Below are positions 41,736-44,806 of a stretch of 64,000 bases of DNA, one piece after another (the stretch's first letter is position 1; each line of letters starts with the position of its first letter). The notes beneath the pieces were generated by a model. The model saw only the letters and a list, made by a program, of their open reading frames with translations, did no database searches and had not been told where the DNA came from. Made by a program: the position numbers and the translations under genes. The DNA is from Lutibacter sp. B2 (GTDB taxonomy: Bacteria > Bacillota > Clostridia > Peptostreptococcales > Thermotaleaceae): NCBI GenBank assembly GCA_015686845.1, contig JADPRS010000002.1, positions 62,001 to 126,000 on the forward strand, written 5' to 3'.

Positions 41736-42998
41736 TTAATATATCATTTCTCCTTGTTCCACTTTTGATGCTCGTCTTACCATTTCATCGTATAATTTTA
41801 CAGTACTGACTGCTTTTACTTCATCGCCATCTTTTTCATAATAAACATTACTTTGAATAATGGCATACTTATCATCATATCCAATAATTTTTATAGGTTT
41901 AAAAATTGCATGTCTATTAATATCTAATACATACACCCCAACTTGTTTATCTTTTCTTTCTACAATACTATCTTTATAAATTTTTAATCCTTCATAATTT
42001 ACAACGACTACGTCTAAATTAATATTTCTTGATTTATAAAAATCATCCGCATTTTGTTGTATCTTAAAGACCACCAAAGTATCTTTTTCATTTTTTATGA
42101 TTTTATGTATTTCTCCTTCTACTTTTTCATCTTTAAGATTAAAAATTACATTTTTTCCAACCTTATAATTTATTACATTATCATTATCTATCCAAGTAAT
42201 AATATACCACAAATTATTATTTACTATTTTAAATAAGGGCTGATTTATTATTGCCTTATCTGTTTTCAAATCAGTCATATTATATTCTAACTTTTTTAAT
42301 TTGTCATGTTCTATACTTAAAATAGTTGTTGGCGTTAATACATTTTCATATCCATCAATACAATAGCTTATAATTCCAGAAATAGGACTGATCATTTCCT
42401 CAATTCCATTATTAATTTTTTGCTCTAACTGAACTTGTTCCTTTTTTAATGACTCTAAATTTCTTTCTCCAAAACTTTCATCCCCATACATAATCCTTTT
42501 TTTTTCTAATTTTAAATTCAATTCATTTTTCAGTTGGATGATTCCTAATATATTTCCATTTTTTTTAGTGCCATTGATTTCGCCTATTATTTCATCAATA
42601 TCATACTCAATTTTTTGTATATCATTTTGAAAAAGTGCGTCTTTATTTTGATTTAGATTCTCTATTCTTTGTGTAATAACTTCAAATTTTCTTTTCGTAT
42701 TTTCTTCCACGATATCCTTAGCTATCTCTACTACTTTATGTCCTTTTTCTACTTTTTCTCCTTCTTGTACAAAATAGCTAACATTACCTTCTATGTTTGT
42801 TTTAACTAATCTTTCGTTCCTTATTATATAACAATTTAAATTATCTACAATTTGAATATTTCCATATTTTACAATGCTGGTTTCATTAGTAGGTGAAAAA
42901 ATCCACGGCATTAATTTTATAATCATATAAGCTATAATGATCCCAAATACAAAGTATCTAACTCTAAATTTTTTATTTTTTTTTCGTTTTGAAATAAT
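41736..42998 (-). CDS. HlyD-like membrane fusion/adaptor protein, non-AUG start
   Basis: A single-pass protein with a basic N-terminus (KRKKNKKFRVR), one helix (YFVFGIIIAYMIIKLMPWIF), a lipoyl-like half (YFVQEGEKVEKGHKVVEIA), a coiled coil and beta-barrel domains, resembling membrane fusion proteins. The first ATG (42926) is inside the helix; the frame is open up to a TAA at 43028-43026, and GGAGAGGAGG at 43017-43008 sits 9 bases before an ATT at 42998. An AUU start (420 residues) best fits. No transporter partner is adjacent. Confidence 0.78.
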   Translation of the reverse strand: MISKRKKNKKFRVRYFVFGIIIAYMIIKLMPWIFSPTNETSIVKYGNIQIVDNLNCYIIRNERLVKTNIEGNVSYFVQEGEKVEKGHKVVEIAKDIVEENTKRKFEVITQRIENLNQNKDALFQNDIQKIEYDIDEIIGEINGTKKNGNILGIIQLKNELNLKLEKKRIMYGDESFGERNLESLKKEQVQLEQKINNGIEEMISPISGIISYCIDGYENVLTPTTILSIEHDKLKKLEYNMTDLKTDKAIINQPLFKIVNNNLWYIITWIDNDNVINYKVGKNVIFNLKDEKVEGEIHKIIKNEKDTLVVFKIQQNADDFYKSRNINLDVVVVNYEGLKIYKDSIVERKDKQVGVYVLDINRHAIFKPIKIIGYDDKYAIIQSNVYYEKDGDEVKAVSTVKLYDEMVRRASKVEQGEMIY

Positions 42999-43040
42999 CT
43001 CTTTAGTCCTCCTCTCCAGTGTCCATTAACTTAAAACCAT

Positions 43041-43046
43041 ATTATA
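43041..43046 (-). promoter_or_regulatory. Candidate -10 for the HlyD-ylmE-sepF-divIVA operon
   Basis: TATAAT on the minus strand, 43 bases before the proposed ATT start. No convincing -35 is visible 16-18 bases upstream, so the assignment is weak. Confidence 0.3.
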
Positions 43047-43091
43047 TTTATTATTCTTCATATAAATTTATTTTCCTTCAGACTAATGGAC

Positions 43092-43139
43092 TATTTTGTT
43101 TTATTTTTTTATATACTTATAAAAAAATAAAACAAAATA
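43092..43139. repeat. 48-base AT-only perfect palindrome
   Basis: Arms of 22 bases (43092-43113 and 43118-43139) pair perfectly around loop TACT. It lies between the tRNA-like gene's terminator and the HlyD gene. The composition is almost pure A/T, with one G-C pair per arm. It could extrude as a cruciform or act as a weak second terminator. Confidence 0.75.
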
Positions 43140-43143
43140 ATAA

Positions 43144-43163
43144 GACCATGAATCATCATAGCC
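43144..43163 (-). terminator. Intrinsic terminator of the tRNA-like gene
   Basis: Stem GGCTATGA/TCATGGTC (8 bp with two wobble pairs), loop TGAT, then TTATTATTTTGTTTT on the minus strand, 12 bases after the tRNA-like 3' end. Confidence 0.7.
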
Positions 43164-43175
43164 TTATCATTTCAG

Positions 43176-43249
43176 TCTGGGTACTAAAACTTGAACGCAT
43201 GACCTCTAGAACAACATTCTAGCATGCTACCAAACTGCACCACAGCCAG
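43176..43249 (-). tRNA. Degenerate tRNA-Pro-like gene with GUU anticodon (probable pseudo-tRNA)
   Basis: The minus strand folds as a 74-base tRNA: acceptor CTGGCTG/TACCCAG (one C-C mismatch), D-arm GTGC-AGTTTGGTA-GCAT, anticodon stem CTAGA/TCTAG with loop ATGTTGT (anticodon GTT, Asn-like), variable AGGTC and T-loop TTCAAGT. The body resembles tRNA-Pro, including C1-G72, not tRNA-Asn. The T-stem has two mismatches and two wobbles, and the 3' end reads ACTGA rather than ACCA. A good promoter and a terminator flank it, so it is probably transcribed. Function as a translating tRNA is doubtful. Confidence 0.6.
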
Positions 43250-43266
43250 GTGAGTATATGTCTTTT

Positions 43267-43295
43267 ATTATACATAATAAAATCTCTTTTTACAA
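43267..43295 (-). promoter_or_regulatory. Promoter of the tRNA-like gene
   Basis: -35 TTGTAA (43295-43290), a 17-base spacer and -10 TATAAT (43272-43267). It would start RNA about 10 bases before the tRNA-like 5' end. Confidence 0.7.
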
Positions 43296-43327
43296 GTATA
43301 GGGGGTGATATATCCTTCATCGTAGAT

Positions 43328-44806
43328 CTATAATATAATACAAATCAAACCTCCGTTTCCATCATTTACAATTTTCTGTAATGTGCGTTGCATTTTCTGT
43401 CTTGCATCTTCAGGCATCATGAATAATTTATTTTGTAATTGTTCTTTAACCATGTCATGCAATGATTTTCCAAACATATTCGTTTCCCATATTTTACCAG
43501 GATCTGATTCAAACTCTTTCAATAAATATTTCAACAATTCCTCACTTTCTTTTTCTGTACCAATAATAGGTGAAACCTCCGTTGCTATATCGGCTCTTAT
43601 TAAATGTAGTGAAGGTGCATTAGCTCTTAGCTTAACACCAAATCTATTTCCATGCTTAAAAATTTCTGGTTCCTCTAATTCTAACTCCATCAAACTAGGT
43701 GCTACCAATCCATATCCTGTTTCTTTTGCATCTTTAAGTGCAGATTCAACTTTACTATACTCTTTTTTTGCTCTTGAAAATTCTTTCATTAGCCCTAATA
43801 ATTGATGATCTCCTTCAATTTCATATCCTGTCATCTCTTCTAAAATTTTGTAAAATAATCCTTCTTGCGTTTTCACATTAATATGTGTAATCCCTTGACC
43901 TAGTTCAATATTATTTAACAAAACTTCTGATATTTGTTCTACCTCATCAAACTTATTTAATGCTTTTTTAATATCATTTACTTTCGTAATATCTTTACTC
44001 CAGCCTTTAATCGTTCCAATAATATCTTTCTTTAACCAGTGATCTAATTCTAATCCATCCACCCAGCCTGGTAATGTTATATTAATCTCTTTAATAGGAA
44101 ATTCGAATAATACATTTTCTAAAATTGTATTCACATCATCTACTTCCATCTGCGCACAATTCGTTATTACTACTGGAACTTGATATTTTTCTTCTAATTG
44201 TTTTTTCAATTCTACAGTTTCTAAAGCTTGTGGTTTAATAGAATTAAGTACTATGACAAATGGTTTATTCAAATCTTTCAATTCTTGAATAACTCTATTT
44301 TCTGCTTGTATATATTGATTTCTACCAATATCAGTTACGCTACCATCCGTTACAACTACTAATCCAATAGTAGAATGATCCGTAATTACTTTTTTTGTTC
44401 CTATCTCAGCTGCTTCTGCAAAAGGAATTTCTTTATCATACCAAGGCGTTGTTACCATTCTGGCCTTTCCATCTTCTTCATGACCAAGTGCACCATCTAC
44501 TAAGTATCCTACACAATCAACTAACCTAACTTTAAATTTCGCATTATCCTTTAGATGTAATTCTACCGCTTCATTTGGTACAAATTTGGGTTCAGTTGTC
44601 ATGATCGTTTTTCCTGCACCACTTTGAGGAAGTTCGTCTTTCGCTCTTTCTCTACTATGTGCATTTTCAATATTTGGAATTACCATCAAATCCATAAATC
44701 GTTTTATAAATGTTGACTTCCCAGTTCTAACTGGACCTACCACACCTACATAAATATCACCTTGTGTCCGTTGTGCAATATCATTATATATATCGAATTT
44801 TTCCAT
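43328..44806 (-). CDS. spoIVA: Stage IV sporulation protein A (spore coat morphogenetic ATPase)
   Basis: Polymerises on the forespore surface in the mother cell, using ATP, to form the coat basement layer. The 492 residues start MEKFDIYNDIAQRTQGDIYVG, with Walker A GPVRTGKSTF near 24-33, LPQSGAGKTIMTTEPKF and VTDGSVTDIGR, and end in the conserved GGLICIIL anchor. The family is exclusive to endospore formers. Probably sigma-E dependent; a CATACACT at 44881-44888 matches the sigma-E -10 but lacks a matching -35. Confidence 0.97.
   Translation of the reverse strand: MEKFDIYNDIAQRTQGDIYVGVVGPVRTGKSTFIKRFMDLMVIPNIENAHSRERAKDELPQSGAGKTIMTTEPKFVPNEAVELHLKDNAKFKVRLVDCVGYLVDGALGHEEDGKARMVTTPWYDKEIPFAEAAEIGTKKVITDHSTIGLVVVTDGSVTDIGRNQYIQAENRVIQELKDLNKPFVIVLNSIKPQALETVELKKQLEEKYQVPVVITNCAQMEVDDVNTILENVLFEFPIKEINITLPGWVDGLELDHWLKKDIIGTIKGWSKDITKVNDIKKALNKFDEVEQISEVLLNNIELGQGITHINVKTQEGLFYKILEEMTGYEIEGDHQLLGLMKEFSRAKKEYSKVESALKDAKETGYGLVAPSLMELELEEPEIFKHGNRFGVKLRANAPSLHLIRADIATEVSPIIGTEKESEELLKYLLKEFESDPGKIWETNMFGKSLHDMVKEQLQNKLFMMPEDARQKMQRTLQKIVNDGNGGLICIIL

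What the first reader, a model, noticed from the sequence alone, without database searches (positions are those of the whole stretch)
43144..43295. Complete transcription unit for a degenerate tRNA-Pro-like RNA with GUU anticodon
A tRNA-Pro-like fold with C1-G72 carries an Asn-type anticodon, a broken T-stem and ACTGA instead of ACCA, yet has a 17-spacer promoter (TTGTAA/TATAAT) 18 bases upstream and an intrinsic terminator. Kept expression signals around a damaged tRNA suggest a non-translational tRNA-like RNA, as known for some Firmicute atypical tRNAs, or very recent decay. Position beside spoIVA and the division cluster adds interest.
Basis: partly seen in the sequence, partly recalled or inferred. 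Interest (0 to 1): 0.6.

Follow-up and report, generated by a model that had tools for sequence, protein, structure and literature searches.

The report
Decayed proline tRNA gene beside spoIVA
This is most likely the worn-out remnant of an ordinary proline tRNA gene (anticodon GGG) that stands intact at the same place, just after the sporulation gene spoIVA, in the related bacteria examined, rather than a new kind of RNA.

Summary
In detail: minus strand 43249-43173 is a tRNA-Pro-like sequence with GUU anticodon, a damaged T-stem and ACTG for ACCA, after a TTGTAA-17-TATAAT site and before a strong terminator. ARAGORN does not call it; Rfam tRNA gives 27.5 bits (cut-off 29). It is the ortholog of tRNA-Pro(GGG): in 15 of 15 fetched spoIVA loci of relatives an intact tRNA-Pro(GGG) follows spoIVA on the same strand. 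The copy here differs from them at 16-19 positions; intact family orthologs differ from each other by 4.9 on average (at most 10), and this genome's tRNA-Pro(UGG) is identical to a relative's. Changes are mostly C/G to A/T, hit anticodon bases 35 and 36, and break stem pairs about as often as random scatter; but all 13 tertiary-core residues checked are kept, which random scatter seldom does (3.5-6.6%). The sister genome has the gene intact, so function was lost on this branch. The terminator hairpin is conserved and may also end spoIVA. Best reading: a pseudogene of a dispensable isoacceptor. A retained non-translational role (an asnS T-box with AAC specifier exists) is not excluded and lacks direct support.

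The parts
43173..43249 (-). decayed ortholog (probable pseudogene) of tRNA-Pro(GGG); anticodon now GUU, ACTG instead of ACCA
43267..43295 (-). sigma-70/sigma-A type promoter-like site TTGTAA-17-TATAAT, 17 nt before the tRNA start
   Evidence: best upstream site of 10/12 or better in 8 of 14 orthologs scanned, 7-9/12 in the other 6 (no chance control there); in the window not above chance on its own
43133..43174 (-). intrinsic terminator, stem of 19 pairs by the scan (16 compared with orthologs), loop 4, T-rich tail
   Evidence: 16 of 16 stem pairs kept with 3 double and 3 single changes against the version found in G008 and G015
43328..44806 (-). spoIVA, upstream neighbour and synteny anchor
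   Evidence: TIGR02836 spore_IV_A, 814 bits, cut-off 460
41736..42926 (-). downstream neighbour, HlyD-like putative membrane fusion protein, second synteny anchor
   Evidence: TIGR02828 72 bits, below its cut-off of 154; orthologs downstream of the tRNA in 14 of 15 loci, the fifteenth contig ending at the tRNA

Best explanation
A pseudogene of the tRNA-Pro(GGG) gene that sits between spoIVA and an HlyD-like gene in this clostridial family. The gene was under tRNA constraint until some time after the window's lineage split from its nearest examined relative, G013, and then lost it. The other isoacceptor, tRNA-Pro(UGG), is intact here and can, by established knowledge from enterobacteria, read all CCN codons when its wobble U is modified, so the GGG isoacceptor can be dispensed with. 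Mostly C/G-to-A/T changes then removed anticodon bases G35 and G36 (needed for CCC/CCU), broke one acceptor and two T-stem pairs and removed the encoded CCA. The terminator hairpin is kept, most likely because it also ends the spoIVA transcript; the promoter-like site has had little time or is there by chance. Shown: orthology, acceleration, loss on this branch, paired changes in the terminator. Inferred: loss of function, takeover by tRNA-Pro(UGG), the terminator's second use.
For: The 19 other matches that were given loci in the relatives search are all tRNA-Pro(GGG) by ARAGORN; spoIVA lies upstream in 15 of the 19, and the other 4 show none in the ~1.5 kb held. In 15 of 15 larger spoIVA loci (14 family genomes, 1 outside) the tRNA follows spoIVA on the same strand. 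Of 25 named spoIVA loci 8 carry it (two Marinisporobacter MAGs, Anaerosolibacter, Anaerophilus, Alkaliphilus, Maledivibacter, Natronincola, Anaerovirgula). 16-19 differences here against a mean of 4.9 (max 10, 91 pairs) between intact family orthologs; 14 other tRNAs of this genome differ by 0-9 from G006's, tRNA-Pro(UGG) by 0, this one by 18. 9 of 62 columns invariant in 14 full-length orthologs are changed. 18 of 21 pairs kept, random scatter gives 17.6 (P 0.53-0.54; 0.23-0.50 with three other references). Cloverleaf energy -7.2 against a minimum of -23.5 kcal/mol; the intact G012 ortholog has -25.3 against -28.8. The sister G013 (support 100/99) has the gene intact. tRNA-Pro(UGG) is present and DNA searches found no second GGG copy in this genome. 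UGG reading all four proline codons in E. coli: PMC4519876, abstract and passages seen. Auxiliary tRNAs lost more than gained: PMC4041420, passages seen (it has no occurrence of 'GGG' or 'proline').
Against: All 13 tertiary-core residues I checked (list recalled) are kept; random scatter does this in 3.5-6.6% of runs, and together with 18 or more pairs kept in 0.6-2.7%, depending on the reference. The D-stem C11-G24 to U11-A24 double change keeps a pair (at least one such change in 28% of runs). CCC is not avoided: 44 of 495 proline codons in long window ORFs, within the range of 14 relatives. The assembly is a draft with 20 tRNAs over the cut-off (150 of 220 candidates scored) against 134 matches in G006, so an unassembled intact GGG copy cannot be excluded. 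No same-genus genome was in the set. The fourfold distance to G013 is about 1.0, so the loss need not be recent, and a promoter-like site kept over a long decay would need explaining.
Confidence: 0.84

Rival explanations
1. A retained non-translational tRNA-like RNA: transcribed from its own promoter, folding around a kept D-arm, anticodon arm and T-loop, and acting outside translation, for example as a GUU-bearing decoy or effector for the asnS T-box leader.
For: D-stem 4/4, anticodon stem 5/5 and all 13 core residues checked are kept, jointly with the pair count rare under random scatter (0.6-2.7%); promoter-like site and terminator present; this genome has an asnS T-box with AAC at the specifier position; tRNAOther of Bacillus cereus is a precedent (PMC3399842, abstract and passages).
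Against: Broken pairs are as many as random scatter gives; the predicted minimum-energy fold is not a cloverleaf (nor is that of the intact ortholog, but by a far smaller gap); seen in one genome only, so there is no conservation to show a new constraint; earlier tRNA function on the same branch would also explain the kept core; with 19 T-box matches in this genome (17 over the cut-off) a random anticodon often matches one; no CCA encoded.
Confidence: 0.09
2. A tRNA with switched identity that reads Asn codons AAC/AAU, charged with Asn or Pro.
For: Anticodon GUU on an intact anticodon stem; no tRNA-Asn among the tRNAs found in the draft.
Against: 46% identity to a relative's tRNA-Asn against 77% to its tRNA-Pro(GGG); keeps C1-G72 and A73 of tRNA-Pro while that tRNA-Asn has U1-A72 and G73; broken T-stem and no CCA; a missing tRNA-Asn fits a draft that lacks tRNA arrays (20 against 134).
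Confidence: 0.02
3. An integration scar: a mobile element replaced the 3' half of the tRNA and the intact gene lies elsewhere.
For: Many of the changes lie in the T-arm and 3' end.
Against: No indel in 77 nt; the terminator directly downstream matches that of several orthologs such as G008 and G015, though not that of G013; the anticodon and D-stem are changed too; spoIVA, HlyD-like gene and ylmE lie around it as in relatives; no intact copy found.
Confidence: 0.02
4. Sequencing or assembly error in an intact tRNA gene.
For: Draft assembly in 77 contigs.
Against: 16 or more scattered substitutions without an indel, while the adjacent spoIVA reads through all 492 residues.
Confidence: 0.01

Closest known systems
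tRNA-Pro(GGG) of the same clostridial family (intact orthologs 3' of spoIVA)
   Same: Place, strand, length of 77 nt, C1-G72, A73, anticodon stem, D-loop and T-loop core; a matching terminator in several orthologs (G008, G015) and a promoter-like site of 10/12 or better in 8 of 14 scanned.
   Different: Anticodon GUU, three broken pairs, no encoded CCA, not called by ARAGORN, 27.5 bits against 60.8 for the G006 ortholog.
tRNAOther pseudo-tRNA of Bacillus cereus (PMC3399842)
   Same: A tRNA-derived sequence in a Firmicute that looks unfit for translation, with an anticodon that could match a T-box.
   Different: tRNAOther flanks an island, is found in some other Bacilli, is transcribed as part of larger RNAs and has a deletion phenotype (passages); here one genome, conserved chromosomal neighbours, no expression data.
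Loss of auxiliary tRNAs in bacteria (PMC4041420)
   Same: A non-mandatory isoacceptor is lost in one lineage; that this GGG isoacceptor counts as auxiliary is my inference.
   Different: Here the decaying copy is still visible; 'pseudogene' has no occurrence in the main text of that paper.

Membership tests
tRNA-Pro(GGG), orthology | Same place and strand relative to spoIVA | tested here: met
   15 of 15 larger spoIVA loci
tRNA-Pro(GGG), orthology | Closest sequence among the tRNAs compared | tested here: met
   77% to tRNA-Pro(GGG) of G006, next 64% to tRNA-Pro(UGG)
functional tRNA-Pro(GGG) | Anticodon GGG | tested here: not met
   GTT
functional tRNA-Pro(GGG) | All four stems paired | tested here: not met
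   18 of 21 pairs; 15 of 15 orthologs 21 of 21
functional tRNA-Pro(GGG) | Encoded CCA, as in the orthologs | tested here: not met
   ACTG for ACCA; 14 of 15 orthologs ACCA, the fifteenth (G001) cut one base short by its contig end
functional tRNA-Pro(GGG) | Recognised by tRNA models | tested here: not met
   ARAGORN none, Rfam 27.5 bits under 29
tRNA pseudogene | Accelerated change against functional orthologs | tested here: met
   16-19 against a mean of 4.9 differences, max 10
tRNA pseudogene | Substitutions blind to structure | tested here: inconclusive
   pairs P 0.23-0.54 (as random); core residues P 0.035-0.066, joint 0.006-0.027
tRNA pseudogene | No functional RNA product | not testable with these tools
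   needs RNA data
regulatory pseudo-tRNA (tRNAOther-like) | Conserved as a pseudo-tRNA in several species | tested here: not met
   intact tRNA-Pro(GGG) in 15 of 15 orthologs; no same-genus genome among the 16 of the family
regulatory pseudo-tRNA (tRNAOther-like) | Expression and phenotype of a deletion | not testable with these tools
   no RNA or mutant data held

The most novel reading that the evidence does not exclude
A tRNA-Pro(GGG) gene freed by redundancy was recruited as a non-translational RNA: with GUU on a kept anticodon stem and a kept D-loop/T-loop elbow but no encoded CCA, it competes with tRNA-Asn at the asnS T-box leader (AAC specifier) and tunes asparaginyl-tRNA synthetase expression.
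Probability: 0.04. Interest if true: 0.65.

Novelty: new member of a known kind. Interest (0 to 1): 0.14.

Why it matters
It is a clear view of a dispensable tRNA gene caught while decaying, with the intact gene at the same place in relatives. It shows that a promoter-like site and a terminator around a damaged tRNA need not mean a new function. If the recruited-RNA reading were right, it would be another Firmicute pseudo-tRNA acting on a T-box.

Tried and rejected
Switched-identity tRNA-Asn: set aside on sequence (46% to tRNA-Asn). Integration scar: set aside, since register, neighbours and a terminator shared with several orthologs are kept. Sequencing error: set aside, too many scattered substitutions beside an intact spoIVA. 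Depletion of CCC codons as a sign of the loss: not seen. Wobble-modification enzymes: PF01136 gave three matches in two open frames of this genome; that such U32-type proteins make the wobble modification is recalled, so this is weak. Other weak Rfam matches near the site (Phe_leader, several microRNA models) lie far below their cut-offs and are taken as chance in A+T-rich sequence. Paper searches on tRNA pseudogenes with tRNA-Pro/GGG and on pseudo-tRNAs in Firmicutes showed no paper on a decayed bacterial tRNA-Pro(GGG) among those listed (15, 8 and 12 of 860, 25 and 14); only titles and starts of abstracts were seen there.

Scripts that failed: one search stopped with an index error after the tables used here, because the G001 row has 76 nt; the position table was redone (G001 left out of the invariant-column count, 14 of 15 rows kept). 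One search stopped on a length check and was rerun. On rereading I had first called neutral sites saturated against all relatives and the loss late or recent; one search shows that the sister G013 is not saturated, and the joint simulation result had been left out. For both reasons I lowered the pseudogene reading from 0.87 to 0.84 and raised the non-translational rival from 0.07 to 0.09 and the novel case from 0.03 to 0.04.

Full report
What is there. The minus strand from 43249 to 43173 reads as a 77-nt tRNA without insertions or deletions against its full-length relatives: C1-G72, A73, D-stem 4 of 4, anticodon stem 5 of 5, acceptor 6 of 7, T-stem 3 of 5, anticodon GTT, 3' end ACTG. ARAGORN finds no tRNA in the window and no Rfam family reaches its gathering score there; in a local search the tRNA model gives 27.5 bits against a cut-off of 29. 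The promoter-like site TTGTAA-17-TATAAT lies 17 nt before the tRNA start; such sites are as frequent as expected in this A+T-rich stretch (4 found, 3.3 +/- 2.0 expected). The terminator is well above expectation (1 found, 0.1 +/- 0.3).

What it is. A DNA search of 59 genomes with the 171-nt unit gave loci for the best 20 matches, the window itself included. The other 19 are tRNA-Pro(GGG) by ARAGORN, and in 15 of the 19 the held stretch shows spoIVA upstream; the other 4 show none in about 1.5 kb. I then fetched 16 larger stretches: 15 hold spoIVA (14 genomes of the same family and G020 of another), and in all 15 the tRNA-Pro(GGG) follows spoIVA on the same strand. The sixteenth, from the incomplete genome G003, was taken at its tRNA-Pro(UGG) and holds no spoIVA; G003 showed no GGG match. 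Among 25 named spoIVA loci, 8 carry tRNA-Pro(GGG) downstream, one carries a tRNA-Arg and 16 none; the 16 are more distant in spoIVA (50-67% identity) and some are cut short downstream. The 8 are two Marinisporobacter MAGs, Anaerosolibacter carboniphilus, Anaerophilus nitritogenes, Alkaliphilus transvaalensis, Maledivibacter halophilus, Natronincola peptidivorans and Anaerovirgula multivorans. The window's neighbour matches TIGR02836 spore_IV_A at 814 bits. The element is thus the ortholog of a long-standing tRNA gene.

How it has changed. It differs from the 15 orthologs at 16 to 19 positions (G001, cut at a contig end, compared over 76); intact family orthologs differ among themselves by 4.9 on average and at most 10 in 91 pairs. 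Of 18 distinct intact tRNAs of this genome, 14 have a counterpart of the same anticodon in the G006 loci held, and these differ by 0 to 9; tRNA-Pro(UGG) is identical, while the GGG ortholog differs by 18. Of 62 columns invariant in 14 full-length orthologs, 9 are changed here, among them G35 and G36 of the anticodon, C61, C75 and A76. Against G012, 12 of the 16 changes are C/G to A/T.

Random or constrained? Scattering the same changes at random over the G012 ortholog keeps 17.6 of 21 pairs on average; 18 are observed (P of at least that many 0.54; 0.50, 0.44 and 0.23 with G013, G006 and G010 as reference). One paired double change (C11-G24 to U11-A24) is seen, and at least one is expected in 28% of runs. 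The cloverleaf energy is not clearly better than chance (P 0.15). The predicted minimum-energy fold is not a cloverleaf and lies 16 kcal/mol below it; the intact ortholog's minimum is not a cloverleaf either, but the gap is 3.5. Against plain decay: all 13 tertiary-core positions that I listed from memory are kept, which random scatter does in 3.5 to 6.6% of runs with four references; kept core and at least 18 pairs together occur in 0.6 to 2.7%. Constraint during the earlier, functional part of the branch would explain this, and so would a remaining structural role.

When. A spoIVA tree of 18 rows puts G000 beside G013 (support 100/99), and G013 has an intact tRNA-Pro(GGG). Fourfold-degenerate sites of spoIVA are at or near saturation against most of 13 family genomes, for example 47 of 125 identical (0.376) against G012 with 0.382 expected; against G013 they are not (64 of 125, 0.512, 0.402 expected), giving a rough distance of 1.0 substitution per site for both branches together. 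Some 16-19 changes in 77 (0.21-0.25 per site) would then fit unconstrained change over up to about half of the window's own branch. This is my arithmetic and rough; the loss followed the split from G013 but need not be recent.

Why the signals remain. The terminator stem keeps 16 of 16 pairs against the version found in G008 and G015, with three double changes and three single changes that keep G-U pairs, which speaks for selection on the hairpin; the sister G013 has a different hairpin at this place, so on which branch the changes fell is not known. In G000 the scan of 42930-43340 finds no other terminator on this strand, whereas upstream stretches of G008, G012, G014 and G015 show a hairpin followed by Ts between spoIVA and the tRNA (sequences, read by eye). 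I infer that the terminator here also ends spoIVA. The best upstream promoter-like site scores 10/12 or better in 8 of 14 orthologs scanned and 7-9 in the other 6 (G001 was not scanned). The window's site may be an unchanged remnant or chance.

Why loss is tolerable. tRNA-Pro(UGG) is present and intact. In E. coli the UGG isoacceptor with its modified wobble U reads all four proline codons and is essential (PMC4519876, abstract and passages); auxiliary tRNAs are lost often in bacteria (PMC4041420, abstract and passages). CCC is still used here (44 of 495 proline codons in long ORFs of the window), within the range of 14 relatives. The draft shows only 20 tRNAs over the cut-off (150 of 220 candidates scored) against 134 matches in G006, so a hidden intact GGG copy is possible; in 14 of 15 other family genomes there is exactly one match of 89% or more to the GGG query, and in G003 none. 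Either way the copy here is decayed.

The bold reading. tRNAOther of Bacillus cereus is a pseudo-tRNA with a regulatory effect that was linked to a T-box (PMC3399842, abstract and passages). This genome has 19 T-box matches, 17 over the cut-off, one of them before asnS (TIGR00457, 356 bits on a 300-residue part, cut-off 343) with AAC where the alignment to the model has what I recall as the specifier. The GUU anticodon could pair there. But a random anticodon would often match one of so many T-boxes, no CCA is encoded, and no conservation supports it. I put it at 4%.

Verdict. Most likely a tRNA-Pro(GGG) pseudogene, ordinary in kind, with one unexplained hint of kept tertiary-core residues.

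Noticed in passing
43092-43139: Overlapping the end of the terminator lies an almost pure A+T perfect inverted repeat of two 22-nt arms (43092-43113 and 43118-43139); the terminator's T tract lies in one arm. Read by eye.
   Followed up: no
L023 1582-1658 (G000:C5): ARAGORN labels a tRNA as tRNA-Pyl(cta); the loop CTTCTAA in a 5-pair stem reads as anticodon TCT, so it is most likely tRNA-Arg(UCU) and no sign of pyrrolysine.
   Followed up: partly
L079 7919-9371 (G006): spoIVA matches in two pieces (residues 1-395 and 394-484) in different frames, a possible frameshift or assembly error in that genome.
   Followed up: no
L131 1501-1725 (G000:C62): T-box leader before asnS with AAC at the likely specifier position.
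   Followed up: partly
L127, L129, L132, L133, L134, L138 (G000): T-box leaders in front of open frames that look like amino-acid transporters (not checked against a family library).
   Followed up: no
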